Below, piece after piece: positions 15,007 to 56,204 of a stretch of DNA of 64,000 nucleotides. A program made the translations under genes and the position numbers. Within the stretch, counting starts at the first letter, position 1. Each line of letters begins with the position of its first letter. The notes under the pieces are model-generated. The model searched no databases. It saw only the letters and a list, made by a program, of their open reading frames with translations, and was not told the origin of the DNA. This DNA comes from Ascidia mentula (taxonomy: Eukaryota; Chordata; Ascidiacea; Phlebobranchia; Ascidiidae): contig OX387202.1 of NCBI GenBank assembly GCA_947561715.1, forward strand, positions 14,025,001 to 14,089,000, given 5' to 3'.

Positions 15007-18000
15007 ATGGATCAGCTTTTCAATTTGTTTGTTTCTCCCTCAATGGAACTGGTTGATGATGAGCACAAGGTTCACGCAGAGGAATACAAGCGATGGTTGC
15101 AGACAAATTTCCTAAACCGGTCTCAACTGGATAAGGTGGAAGATTACTATTTTCTTCCGGGATTTAATGAGGATCCAACAAGATATGCCTACGATAAGTT
15201 TGAGTATAGAAGTAACGATATCTTGGTATCTACGCATCCAAAGACAGGTCGGTATAACCAGGAAGAAAGTGTGAAACTTGTTGCTAGTTCAGGTTAAGTT
15301 TATTGTAAACACATATACCCTCTATTCTATATGATTTACCCATAGCAAATATTTTGGGATTTATGGGAGCGTTGCTATTGTGAATGTGACCAATGACGTT
15401 TAGAGTAAAACCAAACAGAACAAAACTAAATGTTGTCAGTTGTCCTGAAATAATCGTGAGTCAAAACGTTTTAGTTGTTACCCCACACAGTCGTCGTGAG
15501 TAAGTAGTTTTTGTTACGATACAAATATTTTTCTATATTTAAAGGTACAACTTGGATGTCAACGATTGTGCAAAATATTGTTTATGGACGCCAACCTGAG
15601 CTTCTGGCAAAAGCTGCCAAATTTAGTCAATTCTTCACGTACTTGGAGTTTGGCCCAGGTAAATCTATCTACAGGTTATATAAACTATAGTCTTCATCCG
15701 GGTACAAATCGCGGAGTTCATTTGTTTGAAGTGCTTTTGTTCTGTATAAAACGGCACAATACACGTTTTATCTGTCTTCGCCGTAGTGGTAAACAGATGC
15801 GTTTTTAAAGGATGTGTACTGAAGAATGCATGCACTTATTCTCAATTCAAGTATTAAAATATATGTCAACGCAGCAATGTTTAATGCAATGTCAAAAAAT
15901 AAGTACTGTAAAGTTAAATTTGCCACTTCTTCAGCCCAGAGAAAAGCAGAAGTATTTACAATAACATTTCTTCTTTCGACAGCCTCCAAGTACCGAGTCA
16001 CAGAAAACGTTCCTTTACCACGACGGATTCTAGGCACCCACCTTCCTGCATCTCTCGTTAACCTTGAGAAGCTCAGACAACGTGGAGTGAAGGTTACTTG
16101 TTGGTCAATGAGAATATTTTGAAAAATTTTACTCATGAAACAGCATCGTCTAAACCAGTTGTTTTAAAGTCCTTTTATTTTATGCCCCTCGTGTTTTACC
16201 CAAGACCCCCCCCCCCCAATTGAAATCAAGCGGGAGATTGTTACTCATTTTTGACATTCAGAAATAAGGATAGTATGGATAATGATAGACGGGTTAATAA
16301 ATTGATATCAATTGGCAATGAGTGTTATCGATCTGAAGAAACTTAATGTTAATGTACATTTAGGGTGCAGTTTAACAATTCTCTACTTGTTTAGATTATT
16401 TACGTGTTGAGAAACCCGAAGGATCGCGCGGTTTCTTTTTACAACTTCGTGATGTCTTTACCTTTGATGAAAGTACCTGATACCACTCCAATTTTTCCCA
16501 AGGATGAAAAAGAGTTTTATGACAAGTGCTTCAGTGGTACTGTTTAAAGTTATTCGATAAGTACTTTGAATTGCATACAAGTGTACACACTGTTTCGACC
16601 TGTAAGGTCTCATCAGTGCAGCGAGTGACTGTCAGCTGCTGATAGACTAGCAGGCACACAGATTTCCACTTTGTGGTAGCTTTCGGCCAATCGTCTATAT
16701 GTTGAGTACCAAACTAGGTACCAATCAACATAGGTACATATCGGCGATTGGCCGAGGTTCCACAAAATGGAAATCTTTGTGCCTGCTAGTCTATCAGCAG
16801 CTGACAGTCACCCGCTGCACTGATGAGACCTTACAGGTCGAAACAGTGTGTACACTTGTATGCAGTTCTCAGTGATTATTATGGCTCTTTTGCGCATACA
16901 ACACTTTGAATTGTTTCCTGCTTAATAGCTCCCTCTTAAGGCTTAATGGAATTTGCGGACGTATTTATTTCCAGTGTATGGATGCAGTATCACATAAAGC
17001 TTTTTCATATTGTAACCTTCCGGATGTAATACAAATGTATAGATTATACAAACCCTTAAAGGTATAAACCATGCACCAAAAGCTAACTTCAACGTGGGCT
17101 TTGGGTTTTCTTATTGAAGTCCCCTTTCAAATTTTTTCAGAGGGCAAACCAAAACATATCACGAGCGTCATCGACGACTACCTTCAAGGCTTGAAAGATT
17201 GGAACAAACACAAAAATGACGAAAACGTGCTTTTTGTTGCATACGAGCAACTAAAGAAGGTATGCAGACCGCCTGTGTCAAACGATCGATGTACTTGTAT
17301 TCATTGTAACTGGACCTTATATATTCAATCATTTTGCGTTCACAAATTTCCCAATGAATCTGATTTATCAATAGGTGTTGCTTGCCGGATTAACTGCATA
17401 ATTCAGTTTCGGAGATTCCCCCGAAAATGCCTCGTGACTGTGTGTCTGACAACCCTGTCGTTAAGATATAAAAAATCCTTTTATCTACATCGTCACGAAA
17501 AACATGCTTTACAAAACTTTTTCGATCGCAGAACCCTCACGCGGAAGTGAAAAAAATAGCTGAATTTCTTGGTGAAACACTGGATGACGCAGAGATCAGC
17601 AACGTGGTCGAAAAAACGTCCTTCCAAAAAATGAAAGAAAAGGCGGAGGAAGGAGGCATTCAGGGCGCAGAAAAACTGTTTAGGAAAGGTGCAACACCAA
17701 GTTTTAAAACCATGTGCTTTTATCTCATAACGTAAAACGTGCAAGACTGTTTACTGAGAAGGATGTTATATTTGTCAGTAGTAAGATACCTCGGATTAAA
17801 TTCAACTATTTACTGGACTGGAAAAACTCGAAAAATATATTTCGCATAGGCTATTGGCATCATTCACGTATTTTTGTTGGGGCATCAGAAACCAGTTGTT
17901 GCAATATGGCTCTTTTGGCAATAATTTTCTTATTTTTACGTTTCTGTATTGCAGAAATAAAACATACCTGGCACCATCAGTAGTAATTTATCAGAAACCA

Positions 18001-19418: not shown

Positions 19419-19466
19419 CTGCATACGTATCCACTGTTTCGACCTTCAAGGTCTCACCAGTGCAGC
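19419..19466 (-). ncRNA. Hammerhead-like motif with altered core
   Basis: On the minus strand: CTGCA, then CTGGTGA (canonical CTGATGA with A6 changed to G), a perfect GACC-TTGAA-GGTC stem II, GAAACAGTGG, GTA and TGCAG. All three helices can form, but the A6 change is expected to weaken cleavage. A single arm with no right half seen. Duplicated at 24139-24186. Confidence 0.6.
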
Positions 19467-19779: not shown

Positions 19780-22700
19780 ATGCAGCAGTTTTTCGATATT
19801 TTTGTTTCTCCCTCAATGGAACTGGTTGATGATGAGCACAAGGTTCACGCAGAGGAATACAAGCGATGGTTTCAGACAAATTACCTAAACCGGTCTCAAC
19901 TGGATAAGGTGGAAGATTACTATTTTCTTCCGGGATTCAATGAGGATCCAACAAGATATGCCTACGATAAGTTTGAGTATAGAAGTAACGATATCTTGAT
20001 ATCTACGCATCCAAAGACAGGTCGGTATAACGAGGAAGAGAGTGTGAGACTGATTCCACAAAACCTTTGCGTTGGTTTGTAGTTAGTTGCGACTAAGTTA
20101 TTGCATCATTTACCTATAGCAAATAATTTGGAATTTGGGGGTGCGCTATGAGGTGCTATTGTAAGTGTGAAAAATGACAAGACGTTTAGAGCAAAAACAA
20201 ACTGAACAAAATTAATTGTTTTCATATATAAAACCTTTTTTTTGTTTCTCCACTGAATAGTCGTCATGAGCAACTGGTTGTAGTTACAAGACATATATTT
20301 TTCTATATTAAAAGGTACAACTTGGATGTCAGCGATCGTGCAAAATATTATTTATGGACGCCAACCTGAGCTTCTGGCAAAAGCTGCCAAATTCACTCAT
20401 TTCTTCACGTACTTGGAGTTTGGCCCAGGTAAATCTATCTACAGGTTATCTAAACTAGTCTTCATCCGGGTACAAATCGCGGAGTTCATTTGTTTGAAGT
20501 GCTTTTGTTCTGTATAAAACGGCACAATACACGTTTTATCTGTCTTCGCCGTAGTGGTAAACAGATGCGTTTTTAAAGGATGTGTACTGTAGAATGCATG
20601 CACTTATTCTCAATTTAAGTATTAATGTATATGTCAACGCAGCAATGTTTAATGCAATGTCAAATATACGTACTGTAAAGTTTAATTTGCCACTTCTTCA
20701 GCCCAGAGAAAAGCAGAAGTATTTACAATAACATTTCTTCTTTCGACAGCCTCCAAGTACCGAGTCACAGAAAACGTTCCTTTACCACGACGGATTCTAG
20801 GCACCCACCTTCCTGCATCTCTCGTTAACCTTGGGAAGCTCAGACAACGTGGAGTGAAGGTTACTTGTTGGTCAATGAGAATATTTTGAAAAATTTTACT
20901 CATGAAACAGAATCGTCTAAACCAGTTGTTTTAAAGTCCTTTTATTTGATGCCCTCTTGTTTTACCCAAGACCCCCCTCTTAAAATCAAGCGGGAGATTG
21001 TTACTCATTTTTGACATTCAGAAATAAGGATAGTATGGATAATGATAGACGGGTTAATAAATTGATATCAATTGGCAATGAGTGTTATCGATCTGAAGAA
21101 ACTTAATGTTAATGTACATTTAGGGTGCAGTTTAACAATTCTCTACTTGTTTAGATTATTTACGTATTAAGAAACCCGAAGGATCGCGCGGTTTCTTTTT
21201 ACAACTTCGTGATGTCTTTACCTTTGATGAAAGTACCTGATACCACTCCAATTTTTCCCAAGGATGAAAAAGAGTTTTATGACAAGTGCTTCAGTGGTAC
21301 TGTTTAAAGTTATTCGATAAGTACTTTGAATTGCAAATAGGTGTACACACGATTTCGACCTGTAAGGTCTCACCAGTGCAGCGGGTGACTGTCAGCTGCT
21401 GTTAGACTAGCAAGCACACAAATTTCCATTTTGTGGTACCTTTCGGCCAATCGTCTATATGTTGAGTACCAAACTAGGTACCAATCAACATAGGTACATA
21501 TCGGCAATTGGCCGAGGTTTCACAAAATGGAAATCTATATGCCTGCTAGTCTAACAGCAGCTGACAGTCACCCGCTGCACTGATGAGACCTTACAGGTCG
21601 AAACAGTGTGTACACTTGTATGCAGTTCTCAGTGATTATTATGGCTCTTTTGCGCATATAATACTTTGAATTGTTTCCTGCTTAATAGCTCCCTCTTAAG
21701 GCTTAATGGTATTTGCGGACGTATTTATTTCCAGTGTATGGATGCAGTATCACATAAAGCTTTTTCATATTGTAACCTTCCGGATGTAATTCAAATGTAT
21801 AGATTATACAAACCCTTAAAGGTATAAACCATGCACCAAAAGCTAACTTCAACGTGGGCTTTGGGTTTTCAAGCGATTCTTTTTGAAGTCCCCTATCAAA
21901 TTTTTTCAGAGGGCAAACCAAAACATACCACGAGCGTCATCGACGACTACCTTCAAGGCTTGAAAGATTGGAACAAACACAAAAATGACGAAAACGTGCT
22001 TTTTGTTGCATACGAGCAACTAAAGAAGGTATGCAGACCGCCTGTGTCGAACGACCGATATACTTGTATTCATTGTAACTGGACCTTATATATTCAATCA
22101 TTTTGTGTTCACAAATTTCCCAATGAATCTGATTTATCAATAGGTGTTGCTTGCCGGATTAACTGCATAATTCAGTTTCGGAGATTCCCTCGAAAATGCC
22201 TCGTAACTGTGTGTCTGACAACCCTGTCGTTAAGATATAAAAGATCCTTTTATCTACATCGTCACGAAAAACATGCTTTACAAAACTTTTTCGATCGCAG
22301 AACTCTCACGCGGAAGTGAAAAAAATAGCTGAATTTCTTGGTGAAACACTGGATGACGCAGAGATCAGCAACGTGGTCGAAAAAACGTCCTTCCAAAAAA
22401 TGAAAGAAAAGGCGGAGGACGGAGGCATTCAGGGCGCAATAAAACTGTTTAGGAAAGGTACAACACCAAATTTCAAACCACGTGCTTTTATCTCATAACG
22501 TAAAACGTGCAAGACTGTTTACTGAGAAGGATGTTATATTTGTCAGTAGTAAGATACCTCGGATTAAATTCAACTATTTACTGGAAATAATCGAAAAATA
22601 TATTTCGCATTGGCTATTGGCATCATTCATATATTTTTGTTGGGGCATCAGAAACCAGTTGTTGCAATATGGCTCTTTTGGCAATAATTTTATTATATGA

Positions 22701-24138: not shown

Positions 24139-24186
24139 CTGCATACGTGTCCACTGTTTCGACCTTCAAGGTCTCACCAGTGCAGC
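24139..24186 (-). ncRNA. Hammerhead-like motif with altered core (duplicate)
   Basis: Duplicate of 19419-19466 with the same CTGGTGA core, perfect stem II and GTA triplet followed by TGCAG. Confidence 0.55.
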
Positions 24187-32800: not shown

Positions 32801-35800
32801 TACCTGCTACAAACAAAGTCATCGACGTTTCCTATTGAAGCCTTCACGAAGTCAACGAGGTCACAAGTACAGTTCCAGTTGTTTCCATCCAGATTTAGAG
32901 TAGTGATATTCGTGTTGTCAGTGAACCACGTTTCGCTGATGGTCGTTAAACTATTGTCCTGGAAAAACATAAAGTAAGGTTACTGTTTTTTTGGGAAGGT
33001 TTGGAACTGTTTTAACTTATTGGCAAGGTCAGGATGAGACCAAATGGGCCGTGGACCCTGGGCCAGTCCTGCCTGCATTTCACATATAGGAAATGCCTGC
33101 ATTTTACATTGAAATATATTAACTCAGGTCTGTGATTTCTGAATGTCTGTGATTTCTGAATGTACCAAATGCGCTAAGTTTTAATTGAAATAATTTGCTA
33201 TCCTTTTAAGCACCCTAGCAATTTTTGTGAGATGCTTTCTACATTTTAGCAAACTTGCAGCGTACCAGTTGTTTCCCGTCGGCTACTATGCTGTGCTGAG
33301 GCAATAACACTTATTTTATGTGAAAAATGCTTATCCGTAGCAAGCTTCTACATATTATTTACAATGATAGCATAGTCCAAATTAAGTGAATACGTAAAAA
33401 TCAGTATATTAGGGCTAGGTCACCTGAAGTGATAGAGTTGTCAAATCGGTCAATGCAGAAAATGCCTTTTCGTCGACTGTTGAAATTTGATTAAAAGAAA
33501 GGTCCAAGGTCTGGAAAAGAAAAACGATTATGACGACCAATGCACGGCACAAAAGAATTTGCAGACTTATTTGTGGCGGCGACATTCCTGAAACAGCACA
33601 TCCCCCAAAAATGCCATGCCAGCTACATTTAATGCAATAAAAAAGATAAACATACATTCAATTAGAAAAACAAACACACTATACGATTTCTTGGTCGAAA
33701 AAGTTTGCTTTGTAACGGTTTATTGCGTCTGTCAAGTTTTTTGCCTGACCATTCGAAAAACCTAAACTATAAGATATGTTAAACCACGGTAAGCTGTCTT
33801 ACTTGCAATGCGACAAGGTTCTTCAGATCGTCAGCGCCAATGGCTGTAATTTGGTTTTTACTACCATGGAAATATTGAAGTTTTCCCAAGTCGACAACGA
33901 GATACCCAGTCAGGCTTTGAAGATTGTTTTCGTTCAAATGCAATTCACGAAGTTCAACCAGGCCTCTGGAAAGCGAACAGCTGTGGTTATGGCGTGGCAT
34001 TTTAATGGCACGTTTCAACCACAACGAGACTCGGAATTTTCGAACGCTTGTGCAGGTTTTCAAATCGATAGTATTTATAGTGTATTTCCAATGTAAATCT
34101 TTCAATGACGCACTTTTTGCGAAATGGTAAGAAGCAAATCTCGCAATTAAATCTGTTTAAAACCAGGATTAAGACGGTTGGCAATTTTAACACAACGAAA
34201 TCACTGAGAAATTTTTGTGCGCTCCGAAAAAGTTAAGCGGTTTTTAACTCCCCTGAACCAATATTTACGAAACTAACAAACATAATTTGCTAATCCGTTG
34301 ATAAAATGCGCAAGGCGGCTCCTATTCCATGGATGACATCGTATTCGCAACGCTCGCCTGGAAGACAAAGGAACCACAGACGTGGCGACGTTGGGGTATT
34401 TTCAGTTTTTTGGAAAACACCCGTCGGGTCAACAACGGTCTTCTTTGTCATTCTTTCTGGTTGGGTGGCGAACACATACCGATAGTAACCAGTCTTCGCT
34501 ATGCAGTCTCTACTTTGACGGGTTGCGAATGCATTTGATTATAAAGGCCAGTTTCACATTCTCTTCATTTTTTTAGTTTAATGTCGCGGGACATTGGTAA
34601 AGCGGGTTCAGGTTTACCTCCCACATTGTTATTTAAAATGTTATAGGGTACCACTGCAATTGCCGTTTTCCTTATAACATTACTTAAGAAAAAACAACGT
34701 TTGGGACCAAAAGCATCCCCTCGTCAATGAAATTCGTTCACCTAACCAGGGCCACCTGTAGTTTCCTTTTTCAACTTTAACGGATTAAAAATTTGGTTCC
34801 GCAAGCGAATAAAGCAGATCCAAACACACAACCTTTATAACAGCAGTTATTAGTCGTGCATTAAACAACATTTATTTCAATGCCAAGAAAAGGCCCGATA
34901 TTGTTCGTACGTCTGTTGCCGGGGCAACATTCTCACCAACGATTGGGTGGTCGCGACCCATGGAAACCCCCTGGTGTGTAGATAAAGTCACACACGCTTT
35001 ATAATCCAGTTAACCGACAGAGTATAGCTTGTCGAAAGGAATGTGCAACGTAAAGTTTTTTAACACGGCCCAAGTGCCTAAACAGGAACAACCACCTCTA
35101 CAGTGATAAAAATTTTGAAAACCTACTACAAGATTTTCGGTCCAATCAAATGCAATGTATATTTATATTAGTATAACCTGTTTTTGATAGGTAAACTGTT
35201 TGCAGAGGTGGTTTGGGTTCTATATATACACCACGTTGTACTTACGTAAAAGCATTGGCTTCAATTGTGGAAATGCGGTTGAAATCCAAGTAGAGTGCAT
35301 TTAATTTCGTCAGTTTCTTGAACATTTCGTTTCCCACCGTGGCCAACATGTTATTGCTGAAATCCAAGGTGGTTAGCGAGGTGAGGGTCTGAAAAGCGGT
35401 GTTGTCGACTGCAGTGAGCTGGTTATAACTCAAATCCAAGGTAGTTAGCGAGGTAAGGGCCTGAAAGTCTGTGTTGTTAACTGTAGTGATGTTGTTATTG
35501 CTCAAATCCAAATTAGTTAGCACGGTAAGGGCCTGAAAAGCGGTGTTGTCGACTGTTGTAAGCTGGTTATAACTCAAATCCAAGGAGGTTAGCGAGGTAA
35601 GGTTCTGAAATACTGTGTTGTCGACTGTAGTGAGCTGGTTATAACTCAAATCCAAATTAGTCAGCACGGTAAGGGCCTGAAAAGCGGTGTTGTCGACTGT
35701 TGTAAGCTGGTTATAACTCAAATCCAAGGAGGTTAGCGAGGTAAGGTTCTGAAATACTGTGTTGTCGACTGTAGTGAGCTGGTTATAACTCAAATCCAAA

Positions 35801-37009
35801 TTAGTCAGCACGGTAAGGGCCTGAAAAGCGGTGTTGTCGACTGTTGCAAGCTGGTTATAACTCAAATCCAAGGTGGTTAGTATTGTAAGGGCTTGGAAAA
35901 CGGCGTTGTCGACTGTAGTAAGGTTGTTATAACTCAAGTCCAAAGTGGTTAACGTGGAAAGCGATTGAAAAGTTGTGTTGTCGACTGCTGTAATTTGGTT
36001 GTGGCTTAAATCCAACACATTCAGTTTGGTAAGATTAACAAACAAAGTTCCATCAATGCTTGTTATGCTGTTGCCGCTTATGTTTAGAGTTGTTGTGTTT
36101 CCGTCGATATCTGCAAAAAAGTTTTTGAATTTTAAAAGTTAACCTGCGATGGTTTATCGATGGTTGAAAAAACATAAACATCGCGGCAGATTTGACATAA
36201 ATGTGTTTTGCTGCAAATCCACGCACATTTTGGTAGAAACGTGCCAAACGCAGCTAGCGTTAATAGTATGATCAATGTGGTTTTAATGTGTATGCTAACG
36301 GACAGGTGGCAAAAATCATAAATAATGCAAAAAGGTTATAAATGCATGTAAAATTCTTTAAAATGCCTGTGGACATTACCCATTGGTGTCCCCTGACCAT
36401 ATGGCATGTGCGGTCGTTAAGCCCTTTCATATGCTATCGTCGTTTTTTGTCGCACGGCGCAAATAGATCGATTGATCAACCATTATGTTTGGACATGCTA
36501 TGGTGCTATAATCGCATTGTACTAAGAACAAATCTTCATATCCCTATAATAGTGCCACGCTGTCATGGCGTTTAAGGCAGGCGAAAGGTATTGTTCGTTT
36601 CCAACAACTCGACAAGTAAAACACACAGTGAAAAGCAAAAATATCCAGAGGCGCAAATTACTCTGCGTGGAAAGACACAGCCGTGTTAGTATACATTGAA
36701 ACAAGTCGCAAGGCAAGTTCTATCGTACAGCGGCAATCTAGTAATTATGGTACATTTGGTTCGCCGTGCGCTGACGTGGAAATAGGCACACATACCTGTT
36801 GGAATAGACATTTCATTACTGCAGTTTGTGATTAAAGTTGTAATGTCGAAATCGCACTCTGTTGCAGCTAAGGCAATCAACGTCGCTGCTACCTGAAAAA
36901 ACAATTGGTAACGGTTTGCAGGCTATTTACTGTGTTTTGAAAGTAACCTGTTGCCAAAGTTCATACTTACATAAACAAAGATGCACACAGTTCTGTATAG
37001 ACAACCCAT
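29834..37009 (-). CDS. LRR-Ig single-pass membrane protein, gene B (10 exons, 671 aa)
   Basis: Exons, 5' to 3' on the minus strand: 37009-36971, 36892-36796, 36110-35246, 33965-33803, 33510-33424, 32958-32804, 32051-31852, 31447-31325, 30386-30145, 29878-29834 (TGA); 2016 nt. Paralogue of gene A with the same ten exons and phases. Domains: signal peptide (MGCLYRTVCIFVYVAATLIA), LRR N-cap, about 16 LRRs, LRR C-cap (CTCDLVDFV, then C and C), a Thr/Pro stalk shorter than in gene A, an Ig-like domain (VLCG, TTWFY, NDSGMYCC), TM helix (VIAIVVIFVACIVLFAGC), and a tail with YGLL and terminal NDYL. Exon 3 alone encodes 12 LRRs, with consensus LDLSYNQLTTVDNTxFQxL. The many N-x-T sites predict heavy glycosylation. 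A surface recognition role is inferred. Confidence 0.85.
32458..32755. repeat. Diverged foldback element related to the hammerhead family
   Basis: In the gene B intron between exons 6 and 7. Outer arms (CCACACGGTTTTGACC... and ...GGGCCGAAACCACTGT) are imperfect reverse complements, and inner arms (ACAGGCACAGAATGTTCTA.. / ..AGAAAATTCTGTGTCTGTTA) also pair. The right end keeps GCTGCACTAAAGAGACC and GCCGAAACC but the core is no longer hammerhead-competent. Confidence 0.6.
35575..35866 (-). repeat. 144-bp higher-order LRR repeat inside exon 3 of gene B
   Basis: Two adjacent 144-base blocks, each coding two LRRs ('..VFQNL..' then '..AFQAL..'), are identical or nearly so at DNA level, whereas neighbouring 72-base LRR units differ more. 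This points to recent expansion by unequal exchange in units of two LRRs. Confidence 0.85.
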
Positions 37010-44785: not shown

Positions 44786-45527
44786 GTCAGCCAGCTTAAA
44801 GTTCAACTATTGAAAACACGTTGATTAAACATGATAAGAAGTTTCTTTCCACTGCTTTCTTCAGGCTTTATTTCATACTGATTGCATTACGGTTATTGTT
44901 TCGCTGCGTAAATTTCAGAACGATTAGCTTCAAGTTATTGTAATAATTGCTGGTGCTGCCACGCATATCTATGACTATAAGGCGGCTCTTCTGGCACAAA
45001 AGGTTCTAAATTTCAACGTTTCGGTTGCTATGCAGCAGCCTTCATCAGGATGTATCGAAATGTGCAAAAACACAGCTTGGTCAATTATCGAGGCGCATAA
45101 ACAGAGAAAAAACGCATTTTTTCTGTAATTAATGTATTTTGCTTTAAATCGTTCCGTTTTCATGCTGTAGTCAAAAAACATACTTACGCTTCCCTGACCT
45201 CAGTGGTGCTGGCGGTAAGGATTTAAGGATTTCGTGTCCTCTAGCCAGCATCACCAGCTAAATGATAAAAGTAAACTGCTATGTTATGCCGTCCTAATGA
45301 GTTGTTCAATGAATTTACGAACTGACTGACTGTACACGGTGAATTCAACTGTAGCCATTGGTGCGTATTTTGAAAAAGAAGAGTTTCCACACTTCATATT
45401 TTGTACACAAAGACTTCAGTAGCGTCAAACACACAATAACAGTCCATCCCCAAACCAAAGAAACAAAATTAACCATATGTCAACATTCTGTACGACAAAG
45501 CAACCAAAAAAAAAACAGTCACTCCTT

Positions 45528-47090
45528 TTGAAATCTATACAGTCAGTACACAATGTGGCATAGAAATGTATTCAATTACATACGTTCGCATAAACAACGC
45601 TCGGTACACTGAGATGTTTTTGTTAGTATGGGCCTGTCTCATTTTCTGAATTACATTAAAGCCGTTGAACTATTAACGTGTTCCTAAATACGAATGATAT
45701 TGGTATCATTTTCATACCTTTGGTTCACGAAGGCACATTTAATCTTATTTGTAACCTCCGATTGCTCGTATGCGCGTGCTTAATCGCCCATTTTTTGGAA
45801 CATATATTGCTTTACACCAGTTTGCCCATACCAGTAATTTAGTTTGTAAATTATGTACTGCAATTTGTGAGTACATTTGTTTTTATTTCACCATTCGTTT
45901 CACTCACACAATCGTCATAATTCGCGAGGAAAACAAAAACTGCAAAAACAAGCAGTTATGTCTCCACAATCACAAATGAAAATGTCCTGATATATAGATC
46001 TATCTGCATAAATTCTAATACGAGACAGATCACATCATATGTAAGATCTAAGAGAGTCTATTCTTGACTAATGAAAACTAAAATAACCTGGGTGGTATTT
46101 TACACAAACAATCAAGTTTTACACTGAAGTAATAAAAAATTACGTTACTTGGCCAAAGCTCACCTCCAAGTACACCCGCCATTTAAAATGGCCGCGGCGC
46201 GCAATCCGCCGTGAGACTTCTCCAGGGTAATTCCGCACACAAGTTGAAATAAAACGTTAAAAACAATTTGTTGGAATCTGTCACATACAAAAACACAAAG
46301 TTGTTGCTTCATATGGAAAGTGTTTACCATATTGGTGTCAGTCTTTAAAAAATGTGTCACGTCGCCGACCACCCAACTTAAAGTTCAACTATTGAAAACA
46401 CGTTGATTAAACATGATAAGAAGTTTCTTTCCACTGCTTTCTTCAGGCTTTATTTCATACTGATTGCATTACGGTTACTGTTTCGCTGCGTAAATTTCAC
46501 AACGATTAGCTTCAAGTTATTGTATTAATTGCTGGTGCTGCCACGCATATCTATGACTATAAGGCGGCTCCTCTGGCACAAAAGGTTCTAAATTTCAACG
46601 TTTCGGTTGCTATGCAGCAGCCTTCATCAGGATGTATCGAAATGTGCAAAAACACAGCGTGGTCAATTATCGAGGCGCATAAACAGAGAAAAAACGCATT
46701 TTTTCTGCAATTAATGTATTTTGCTTTAAATCGTTCCGTTTTCATGCTGTAGTCAAAAAACATACTTACGCTTCCCTGACCTCAGTGGTGCTGGCGGTAA
46801 GGATTTAAGGATTTCGTGTCCTCTAGCCTGCATCACCAGCTAAATGATAAAAGTAAACTGCTAAGTTATGCCGTCCTAATGAGTTGTTCAATGAATTTAC
46901 GAACTGACTGACTGTACACGGTGAATTCAACTGTAGCGATTGGTGCGTATTTTGAAAAAGAAGAGTTTCCACACTTCATATTTTGTACACAAAGACTTCA
47001 GTAGCGTCAAACACACAATAACAGTCCATCCCCAAACCAAAGAATATGTCAACATTCTGCACGGCAAAGCAACCAAACAAAAACAGTCAC
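45528..47090. repeat. Second copy of a tandemly duplicated ~1.5-kb block (first copy 44102-45527)
   Basis: Both copies start TTGAAATCTATACAGTC and share the run through the rhomboid exon-3 relic, the hammerhead-like motif and the end sequence with CACACAATAACAGTCCATCC. Parts recur at 52143-52665 and 59580-60125, so the block belongs to the rhomboid array unit. Confidence 0.85.
45975..46345 (-). pseudogene. Rhomboid exon-3 relic b
   Basis: Duplicate of relic a. The exon part (about 46163-46278) still reads QIVFNVLFQLVCGITLE, i.e. closer to a working exon 3, but it has no partner exons and a short deletion near the 3' end of the exon. Confidence 0.75.
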
Positions 47091-51929: not shown

Positions 51930-53327
51930 CACCAGGGGTTTTCGAGCCCATGTTATTCTACAAAGGAATCCCAATCCTAATATCTCTGAAGCACCATGTT
52001 TGGTTGAAGAAACACAATCGGATTTTCACTTTTCTCAAAACTGTCAAAACATATTTCTAGTGACACCTAGCGGAAACATAAAACACTCGAAACTAACCAC
52101 AGCACAACGCCATAATAAAAAACTAAAAAGCGTCTTTAAGTTTCTTCTGGCACAAAAGATTGTAAATTTCAACGTTTCGGTTGCTATGCAGCAGCCTTCA
52201 TCAGGATGTATCGAAATGTGCAAAAACACAGCATGGTCAATTATCGAGGCGCATAAACAGAGAAAAAACGAATTTTTTTCTCTGCAATTAATGTATTTTG
52301 TTTTCAATCGTTCCGTTTTTCATGCTGAAGTCAAGAAACATATTTTGTTTCCCTGGCCTCAGTGGTGCTGGCGGTAAGGATTTCAGGATTCCGTGTTCTC
52401 CAGCCACCAAAATGATAAAAGTAAACTGGTATAAGTTATGTCACCTAAATTATGTCGACCTAATAAACTGACTGACTGACAGTACACGGTAAATTCAACT
52501 GCAGCAAAATGTGCGCACTTTGAAAATGAAGAGTTTCCATAATTCATATTTTGTACACAATGACTTTAATAGCGCCGAACACACAATAACAGACCATATG
52601 TCAACATTCTGCGCGACAAAGCAACAAAAAAAAAACAGTCACTCCTTTGTGATGTTGGATTCAGACGTTCAGTGCTGGTTGTAAAACGTGACAATTGTAT
52701 GTTGGTATTTTAAGATTTTATGTACAAAGTTCTATAGAAGAAAAGTAAACTGGTAAACCGTCTTGCTGTTACAAGCTCGTGGTTTAGCCGTAATAACAGA
52801 ATTTAGAAACCGGGAATAACTATACAATGAAAATGAATCAAATTATCAATATGCCTAATATATGAACGATTAAACGTTTGCAACATCCATAACATAAACG
52901 TAATAAAGTAATAACCCCCACCCCCCCAAAAAACAAAAAAAACAACAACAACAACAACAAACAAACAGGTGTCTTTTTCGCAATATAGTTCGTAAATACA
53001 AAATAAAAATTAAAGTCAGATTTGCCGATAATCATGGACAAAGAAGCCTTTGACTTGTGACGTCACATTTATTTTTGTATGATGTAAAGTATTGTCCTGG
53101 CCATTGTAACCTAATTTGTGCGTTCTCATATATTTAAAAGTGTTTGCTATCTTCAACATACGGCGCTTTTCTTATGCAAACAAGGCATTTTTGACGCGAA
53201 CGTCTGGTGTGACGTCAAATTCGCTACAGCAGAAAAGATTTACGATTTTCGTTCGCCGTAACTTTTTTTTAGTTGACGTTGAACCGAAAAATTTTGGTTA
53301 TATGTGTGTTGTCGAGGTATCTATAGT
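51661..53327. other. Spacer between R2 and R3
   Basis: Contains a CA microsatellite (about 51887-51929), a SINE fragment (about 51928-52020), part of the array spacer block with a hammerhead-like core (52143-52665), and a poly-C/CAA-rich patch (52915-52970). Otherwise AT-rich with no gene seen. Confidence 0.6.
51887..51929. repeat. CA dinucleotide microsatellite
   Basis: About 20 CA repeats with one G interruption. The long frame running through it is an artefact of the repeat. Confidence 0.95.
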
Positions 53328-55204: not shown

Positions 55205-55503
55205 CTGTAAAACATAATATGTCCTAATATATAGACCTAGTGCGATATGCATGAATTCAAATACGACACAGATCACATAATAATAAAGCCTATTTTCAAA
55301 TGATGGAAACAAAAATAACCTTGGTGGAATTCCATACACACAATCAAGCTGAAGTTGTAATACTTTACGCGAAATTTATCAAATTTGTGTTTTTCAATCG
55401 AGCAATAGATTAACCATAGAACTAGTTTGAAGATTCAGGTAAAAAATATGTTTAAACACCAAAATTCAAAAGCAAAGTGGAGCCAATAATATGAATTGTG
55501 TAA

Positions 55504-55554
55504 GCTGCATACAGATGGCCACAGTTTCGATCTAAAGGGTCTCATCAGTGCAGC
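55504..55554 (-). ncRNA. Hammerhead ribozyme motif, type I, left arm
   Basis: Minus strand: stem I GCTGCA/TGCAGC (6 bp), core CTGATGA, stem II GACC-CTTTA-GATC (one C-A mismatch), GAAA, an imperfect stem III, and triplet GTA before TGCAGC. Core canonical, stem III weaker than in the 16815 copy. Confidence 0.68.
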
Positions 55555-55631
55555 TGGTGTGACTGACTATTAGACGACTTTGCCGACCAAAAGCCAGGCA
55601 AAGACGTCCACTTTGGGGTCATAGTAACAAA

Positions 55632-55681
55632 GCTACACTAATGAGGCCTTGTAGGACGAAATGTGGCCATCTGTATGCAGC
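55632..55681 (+). ncRNA. Hammerhead-like motif, right arm, altered core
   Basis: Plus strand: GCTACA, CTAATGA (G5 changed to A), a GG-rich stem II, GAAA, and GTA before TGCAGC. The G5 change should abolish or strongly reduce cleavage. Confidence 0.55.
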
Positions 55682-56204
55682 TAACACAACCAAAATTAAT
55701 GGTTAAAGACCAAAAGTTCAAAGCTAACGAGCTAATGAGTATTTTTGACAAATAAGTTTGCCATAAACATATTCAGAAATTGGCTGCATCGCAATAAAAC
55801 AATCGAAATTTTTTCCTTTCAGCTAAATAAATGATTGCTAACATAATAGCTGGGCCTGCACAAGTTAACGAACAACTGATATTCCTGTGCCAAACCTGGA
55901 AATAATATACGACCATAAATACAAAAGTCTACCCAGCAGATGTTTAGCAATGTAATTCTTACTAACACGAAACAAAAGGCAACTGAATATCTTCAGGTTT
56001 ACAGTGAAGTCAATTGAAGATAGGATTACATTCCCGACATTGCAACACCACTTTGCATACACGTTCGGCAGTTCGTACGTATTTACAGAGACAAAACCAA
56101 ACCCTAACTATTTTGCAATTCTTCGCAGTGCATCATATAAAGTGCCATGGGTACATTAAGTTACGGAAGCAGCAATTGTTTCATGTTGAATTGCTGTTTT
56201 CGTG

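What the first reader, a model, noticed from the sequence alone, without database searches (positions are those of the whole stretch)
16815..16865. Complete type I hammerhead ribozyme in intron 4 of a sulfotransferase gene
All core positions fit: CTGATGA, a 4-bp stem II closing a 5-base loop, GAAA, a stem III hairpin, a GTA cleavage triplet, and a 5-bp stem I (CTGCA/TGCAG) that brings the ends together. Such a combination is very unlikely by chance, and it recurs at 21575-21625. Hammerheads are known in animal retroelements, satellites and some introns; I know of no description of this one. If it cuts co-transcriptionally it would sever the intron between exons 4 and 5, which could affect splicing or release an intron RNA.
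Basis: partly seen in the sequence, partly recalled or inferred. Interest (0 to 1): 0.88.

Follow-up and report, generated by a model that had tools for sequence, protein, structure and literature searches.

The report
Ribozyme retrozyme inserted by Penelope machinery
The hammerhead ribozyme is real, but it is one of many copies of a tiny mobile RNA element in this genome, and its copies carry the same insertion scars as Penelope-like retrotransposons, which points to what moves such elements.

Summary
The motif is as described (16814-16866: core, three stems, GTA triplet), but it is not a one-off intronic ribozyme. It is the right arm of a 329-bp inverted-dimer insertion (16574-16902) between 11-bp target-site duplications (TSDs). 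The "recurrence" at 21575 is the same insertion in a gene duplication. Core-bearing motifs number about 1,900-2,000 in this 196-Mb genome. The commonest forms are better type I hammerheads (GTC, 7-bp stem I) in tandem units of 285-294 nt: an animal retrozyme. Rfam gives no hit at gathering score for the window or eight other copy-bearing loci.

Strongest new point: insertions carry the footprint of Penelope-like elements (PLEs). Of 23 close opposite-strand pairs, 22 are head-to-head (19 without segmental duplicates). Of 21 independent inverted copies, 18 have a TSD of 8-14 bp, each with one end 2-16 nt and the other 33-48 nt past the cleavage site. Of 17 head-to-head PLE pairs in this genome, 15 show the same pattern, one fails, one could not be aligned. 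In the papers I opened, PLE mobilisation of retrozymes was argued from co-occurrence and shared features. Folding predicts that the opposite arm buries the window ribozyme. No RNA data were available.

The parts
16563..16573 (.). left target-site duplication ACTTTGAATTG
16574..16902 (.). inverted-dimer (head-to-head) retrozyme insertion, two 5'-truncated units with 3' ends pointing outward
16572..16620 (-). left-arm type I hammerhead on the minus strand, GTA triplet, 4-bp stem I; short end (2 nt past cleavage; the last two bases overlap the TSD, so the boundary is ambiguous by 2)
16682..16754 (.). spacer between the two inverted-repeat arms
16814..16866 (+). right-arm type I hammerhead (the finding), predicted cleavage 16860|16861
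16861..16902 (+). long 3' tail (42 nt past the cleavage site)
16903..16913 (.). right target-site duplication ACTTTGAATTG
21334..21661 (.). same insertion in the duplicated gene copy (TSD 21322-21333 / 21662-21673); + hammerhead at 21574-21626; left-arm core mutated (CTGGTGA)
55467..55688 (.). independent third inverted retrozyme in the window, decayed, TSD ACCAAAATT at 55458-55466 / 55689-55697, tails 43 and 13 nt
16395..16538 (+). sulfotransferase exon upstream of the insertion (approximate bounds)
   Evidence: PF00685 E 3.9e-07, profile 93-131
17131..17259 (+). sulfotransferase exon downstream of the insertion (approximate bounds)
   Evidence: PF00685 E 8.3e-05, profile 135-166

Best explanation
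The feature is a decayed copy of a non-autonomous, non-LTR animal retrozyme: a ~285-294-nt unit with a type I hammerhead. Tandem transcripts would be cut at GUC|UGCAG and the unit RNA, probably circularised, would serve as template (cutting and circularisation are inferred, not shown). The genome's GIY-YIG Penelope-like elements supply endonuclease and reverse transcriptase (inferred from the footprint). Both strands of an AT-rich target are cut about 12 bp apart and each 3' end primes a cDNA on sense retrozyme RNA, one starting 2-16 nt and the other 33-48 nt past the cleavage site. The two cDNAs meet at their truncated 5' ends, leaving a head-to-head dimer between target-site duplications. 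The footprint is shown; the enzymology is inferred from it and from the published in vitro PLE. The window copy inserted in a sulfotransferase intron before that gene was duplicated.
For: Genome counts: exact 25-mer 588; TGCACTGATGA-N9..15-CGAAACAG 1,966; CGAAAC-N10..18-TCTGCAGCT 1,869; reversed controls 0, 0 and 2. Commonest forms AGCTGCA-CTGATGA-GACC-TTACA-GGTC-GAAA-CAG...CTG-TC|TGCAGCT: two such forms make up 28 of 57 descriptor hits. Tandem units of 285-294 nt; one array of six + units and one inverted unit sits inside a single 12-bp TSD (L094), its five bounded units 98.6-100% alike. 3' ends bimodal: of 76 ends (window, L001-L048, L078; segmental duplicates included), 8 run into the next unit, 40 stop 1-22 nt past cleavage, 28 stop 32-50 nt past, none at 23-31. 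Close opposite-strand pairs (<=600 bp): 22 head-to-head (19 after dropping three segmental duplicates), 1 tail-to-tail. 21 independent inverted copies: TSD of at least 8 bp in 18 (mode 12), one short and one long end in each of the 18; cross-paired flanks meet both criteria in 11 of 420. PLEs: 121 GIY-YIG hits, a lower bound; pairs within 5 kb 17 head-to-head, 0 tail-to-tail. Of the 17, 14 give automatically a 12-15 bp TSD with one short and one long end, ends differing by 28-65 nt (13, one), and one more does by eye (C72:17897k); cross-paired control 0 of 182 at >=11 bp. LINE-type endonuclease (PF14529): 27 hits, closest two 35 kb apart. Literature: PLE inverted pLTRs, 31-bp tail optional on one of them, TSDs of 8-10 bp in the cases given (PMC3846280, passages); PLE protein cuts and extends both strands and starts at two internal sites (PMC11167929, main text); animal retrozymes with PLEs as candidate mobilisers (PMC7229834).
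Against: No Rfam hammerhead at gathering score in the window or in eight copy-bearing loci; best RAGATH-1-hammerhead 29.1 bits against 56.3 required. No covariation in the 24-sequence alignment, though sequences were mostly chosen by an exact core. Three of 21 inverted retrozymes lack a TSD of 8 bp (L022, L030, L093); four more loci (L013, L020, L092, L095) escaped the detector: L095 has a 12-of-13-bp TSD by eye with 14/37-nt ends, L013 none, L020 and L092 gave no result. Of 17 PLE pairs one (C73:5470k) shows no TSD and one (C52:16704k) could not be aligned. No homology between retrozyme units and 30 PLE loci except where a retrozyme copy itself lies (L078) or a possible relative (L068); other matches E 0.02 or worse, so the helper PLE family is unknown. 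Published PLE data do not fully fit: the in vitro study saw no difference in start site between strands, and found the hammerhead not needed for insertion (PMC11167929); the rotifer study prefers self-priming on an antisense template for head-to-head copies (PMC3846280). No RNA data.
Confidence: 0.87

Rival explanations
1. A MITE (DNA transposon) whose terminal inverted repeats look like hammerheads by coincidence.
For: The window copy looks like a palindromic MITE: arms of 125 nt, 92% complementary, 73-nt spacer.
Against: The two outer ends of one insertion are unequal (2-16 against 33-48 nt past the cleavage site in 18 of the 18 copies with a TSD). Centres differ from copy to copy; spans between the two cleavage sites run from 110 to 503 nt in one-plus-one copies. 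Single and tandem copies exist. The hammerhead core is 91% alike between subfamilies A and C whose remainder is 43% alike (the sampling asked for the core).
Confidence: 0.02
2. Retrozymes mobilised by a LINE, with inversions from LINE-type twin priming.
For: Retrozyme papers leave LINEs open as helpers (PMC7229834, discussion). Long open frames with a LINE-type endonuclease exist here.
Against: As I recall it (no call), twin priming inverts an internal 5' piece, so only one outer end would be a 3' terminus; here both are, at two preferred positions. PLEs show the same pattern. The 27 LINE-endonuclease hits lie at least 35 kb apart, although that does not sample truncated LINE copies.
Confidence: 0.07
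3. PLE machinery, but by self-priming on an antisense template (as proposed for rotifer PLEs) instead of priming from both cut strands.
For: Authors of PMC3846280 prefer this for head-to-head PLE copies with palindromic junctions.
Against: Self-priming does not by itself explain why both outer ends stop at two different preferred start sites, one each. Both-strand extension is shown in vitro (PMC11167929). Junction palindromes were not analysed here.
Confidence: 0.2
4. An intronic hammerhead exapted to cut the sulfotransferase intron and affect splicing or release RNA.
For: Sense orientation in an intron; the right-arm ribozyme letters are the same in both gene copies.
Against: Triplet (GTA) and stem I differ from the commonest family form. 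The opposite arm is transcribed first, and the predicted fold buries all 53 nt. The two copies come from one insertion. Relatives lie on several contigs.
Confidence: 0.04

Closest known systems
Animal non-LTR retrozymes (Cervera & de la Pena 2020, PMC7229834; abstract, introduction, three results sections, discussion and searched passages seen)
   Same: Canonical type I hammerhead, ~300-bp units in tandem, GC below 50%, TSDs longer than 4 bp, coexistence with PLEs carrying minimal hammerheads.
   Different: Head-to-head TSD-flanked copies and the short/long end pairing are not in that main text ('inverted', 'head-to-head' and 'opposite orientation': 0 occurrences); supplements not seen.
Penelope-like elements (PMC3846280 abstract and passages; PMC11167929 abstract and main text)
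   Same: Head-to-head inverted copies, tail on one of two inverted ends, short TSDs, AT-rich targets, two internal RT start sites, type I hammerhead.
   Different: PLEs encode RT and GIY-YIG endonuclease and carry a minimal hammerhead; this element is ~290 nt with a canonical hammerhead and no convincing homology to the PLE loci compared.
Plant LTR retrozymes (PMC4918200 seen in search listings only; as described in PMC7229834)
   Same: Non-autonomous ribozyme-bearing retroelement with a small circRNA.
   Different: Type III hammerhead in LTRs, 4-bp TSD, Gypsy-type helper.

Membership tests
Type I hammerhead ribozyme | Core CUGANGA / GAAA / UH with three stems, stem I open-ended | tested here: met
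   the core definition is partly recalled
Type I hammerhead ribozyme | Rfam hammerhead model at gathering score (a detection rule, not a defining feature) | tested here: not met
   best 29.1 bits against 56.3
Type I hammerhead ribozyme | Covariation of the stems | tested here: inconclusive
   none in 24 sequences chosen mostly by an exact core
Type I hammerhead ribozyme | Self-cleavage in Mg2+ | not testable with these tools
   -
Animal non-LTR retrozyme | Unit of 170-400 nt in tandem copies with one type I hammerhead per unit | tested here: met
   285-294 nt, up to six units on one strand
Animal non-LTR retrozyme | GC below 50% | tested here: met
   0.47-0.48 in three units; the paper's Figure 1 legend says below 45%, which is not met
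Animal non-LTR retrozyme | TSD longer than 4 bp | tested here: met
   8-14 bp in 18 of 21 independent inverted copies
Animal non-LTR retrozyme | No LTR, primer binding site or polypurine tract | not tested
   -
Animal non-LTR retrozyme | PLEs with minimal hammerheads in the same genome | tested here: met
   121 GIY-YIG hits; hammerhead-like motifs beside three PLE families read by eye
Animal non-LTR retrozyme | Expressed as linear and circular RNA | not testable with these tools
   no RNA data
Mobilised by PLE machinery | Head-to-head inverted copies, one end with tail and one without, within one TSD | tested here: met
   retrozymes 18 of 21; PLEs of the genome 15 of 17
Mobilised by PLE machinery | PLE protein reverse-transcribes retrozyme RNA | not testable with these tools
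   -
MITE | Same terminal sequence at both ends of one insertion | tested here: not met
   unequal ends in 18 of 18 copies with a TSD

The most novel reading that the evidence does not exclude
Retrozymes and PLEs integrate by one asymmetric two-strand priming reaction. The two target 3' ends prime on sense RNA at two different start sites on either side of a hairpin, each site used once per event, so a head-to-head insertion has exactly one short and one long end. Retrozyme RNA thus behaves as a natural trans-substrate of the PLE enzyme, with a circular RNA giving tandem arrays in one step.
Probability: 0.55. Interest if true: 0.75.

Novelty: new variant of a known kind. Interest (0 to 1): 0.6.

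Why it matters
What moves animal retrozymes is an open question; PLEs were proposed because they co-occur, are tandem and carry hammerheads (PMC7229834). A shared and unusual integration scar ties retrozymes to PLE enzymes more directly, gives a genome test that can be run on any animal with retrozymes, and suggests a rule (one short end, one long end) for how PLE enzymes prime on both strands.

Tried and rejected
Rfam at gathering score and at loose E-value: Hammerhead_3 in a wrong register (25.8 bits) and RAGATH-1, both far below threshold. Covariation: none in 24 sequences; not used as evidence. Single-strand fold of the 61-nt motif alone was not unusually stable (z -0.97). Homology between retrozyme units and 30 PLE loci: nothing convincing (later PLE loci L079-L123 not compared). 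A hairpin bracketing the two start sites in PLEs and retrozymes was seen by eye and not tested. Inner junctions of the inverted copies were printed and not analysed. Species: not identified; a literature search by genome span gave nothing. Idea that the two window copies are independent recurrences: rejected. The single tail-to-tail pair (C1:1562446+/1562687-) looks like two neighbouring insertions, judged from places only. Literature for an earlier report of inverted retrozymes or of the PLE footprint in retrozymes: searches (listings of 22, 23 and 49 were capped at 20 of 32, 22 and 31 papers); I saw none in what I opened: PMC7229834 and PMC11167929 (sections), PMC3846280, PMC7761336, PMC8969392, PMC11722881 and PMC8490949 (passages; abstract too for PMC3846280). 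Other listed papers were not opened; subscription papers, preprints and supplements were not seen.

Full report
Observation. The motif at 16815-16865 is as described. A type I descriptor finds it three times in the window, never in the reversed sequence or in ten shuffles. It sits in the right arm of a nearly palindromic stretch (16557-16681 / 16755-16879, 92% complementary, 73-nt spacer), with a second hammerhead on the minus strand in the left arm. The recurrence at 21575 lies in a ~4.77-kb tandem duplication. Rfam at gathering score finds only a tRNA. At loose thresholds RAGATH-1-hammerhead reaches 17 bits here and 29.1 bits in a consensus-type copy against 56.3 required; eight copy-bearing loci also give no hit at gathering score.

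A large family. The window lies in a 195.8-Mb genome. The exact 25-mer of the core occurs 588 times, looser patterns 1,966 and 1,869 times, reversed controls 0, 0 and 2. Of 57 descriptor hits in the window and loci, 28 are one of two forms with AGCTGCA-CTGATGA-GACC-TTACA-GGTC-GAAA-CAG...CTG-TC|TGCAGCT, a better type I hammerhead with GTC and a 7-bp stem I; the window copy has GTA and a shorter stem I. Copies occur in tandem with units of 285-294 nt, GC 0.47-0.48 in three units. Three subfamilies: unit identities 76-80% (A against B) and 53-61% (C against A or B). In a three-way alignment the core is 91-100% alike while the rest is 43-72% alike; the sampling asked for the core, which inflates this contrast. 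These are the features of animal retrozymes (PMC7229834).

Ends. Measured from the cleavage site, the 76 3' ends found in the window, L001-L048 and L078 fall in two classes: 40 at 1-22 nt, 28 at 32-50 nt, none between, and 8 that run into a next unit (segmental duplicates included). Among 232 distinct copies on contigs C1 and C2 (only the first 100 places of each of three searches are listed), neighbours within 600 bp are head-to-head (-/+) 22 times, tail-to-tail once, same-strand 15 times; three of the 22 are segmental duplicates by their shared TSDs, leaving 19. The end finder picked up 25 inverted copies, 21 after dropping four segmental duplicates. Of the 21, 18 have a flanking direct repeat of 8-14 bp, mode 12, 76% A+T, and in each of the 18 one end is 2-16 nt and the other 33-48 nt past cleavage; flanks paired at random meet both criteria in 11 of 420. 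L022, L030 and L093 fail. Four more loci (L013, L020, L092, L095) were not picked up: L095 has a 12-of-13-bp duplication by eye with ends at 14 and 37 nt, L013 none, L020 and L092 gave no result. For the window copy the TSD is ACTTTGAATTG at 16563-16573 and 16903-16913, tails 2 and 42 nt; a third, independent inverted copy lies at 55467-55688 with TSD ACCAAAATT.

The same scar in PLEs. GIY-YIG domains give 121 hits, a lower bound since 150 of 382 candidates were scored; one array has an 892-residue frame with RT and GIY-YIG domains. Pairs within 5 kb are head-to-head 17 times, tail-to-tail never, same-strand 6 times. Of the 17, 14 show automatically a 12-15 bp TSD with one short and one long end, differing by 28-65 nt (13, one); one more shows it by eye; one (C73:5470k) shows no TSD and one (C52:16704k) could not be aligned. 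Control flanks never reach 11 bp in 182. The 27 LINE-type endonuclease hits lie at least 35 kb apart. Published PLE work describes these features: inverted pLTRs, a 31-bp tail optional on one of them, TSDs of 8-10 bp in the cases given, some copies without TSD (PMC3846280), and an enzyme that cuts and extends both strands and starts at two internal sites (PMC11167929). Two published points do not favour my version: no difference in start site between strands and no need for the hammerhead in vitro, and a self-priming model for head-to-head copies.

Mechanism. I infer that PLE enzymes in this genome use retrozyme RNA in trans. Both strands of an AT-rich target are cut with a ~12-bp stagger; each end primes a cDNA on sense RNA, one at each of the two start sites; truncated 5' ends join in the middle. 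One TSD enclosing seven units (L094) fits a circular or multimeric template copied in one event, although later homogenisation cannot be excluded. Shown: family, ends, TSDs, orientation, shared scar. Inferred: cleavage, circularisation, the enzyme.

The intron. Pfam places sulfotransferase exons on both sides in the sense direction. The RNA of the insertion folds into one long hairpin in which every ribozyme nucleotide pairs with the opposite arm; forcing the ribozyme costs about 85 kcal/mol. Because the opposite arm is transcribed first, efficient self-cleavage of this intron is unlikely. The long hairpin might matter for RNA editing or small RNAs; not tested.

Novelty. The retrozyme is a new family of a known kind. 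The head-to-head, TSD-flanked copies and the short/long end pairing shared with PLEs were not in what I opened from searches; PMC7229834 has no occurrence of 'inverted', 'head-to-head' or 'opposite orientation'. PLE mobilisation of retrozymes itself is a published hypothesis (PMC7229834; PMC7761336; PMC8969392).

Noticed in passing
window 45011-45048, 46593-46630, 52167-52204 (minus strand): Three copies of CTGATGAAGGCTGCTGCATAGCAACCGAAACGTTGAAA, which look like a minimal PLE-type hammerhead; the one read further (45011) is followed by a GTGCCAGAAGAGC...TGGCA hairpin as in a PLE family of this genome: probably PLE remnants.
   Followed up: partly
L061-L065 (C67:6134028-6146916): Tandem and head-to-head PLE array of five GIY-YIG hits, three with an open frame of 892 residues, suggesting recent PLE activity.
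   Followed up: partly
window 35349-36015: Tandem repeat of a 72-bp unit, about 9 copies.
   Followed up: no
window 19436-19460 and 24156-24180 (minus strand): Further retrozyme fragments with a mutated core (CTGGTGA), about 4.72 kb apart like the tandem duplication.
   Followed up: no
L068, about 694-760: A divergent hammerhead-like motif (CTGATGAGAATTAATATGTCGAAACAG...CTGTCTGCCGC), possibly a fourth retrozyme subfamily.
   Followed up: no
L079-L087, L102-L121: In PLE families of this genome a hairpin seems to bracket the two end sites (for example CCACCAG...CTGGTGG); seen by eye, a possible recognition element for the reverse transcriptase.
   Followed up: no
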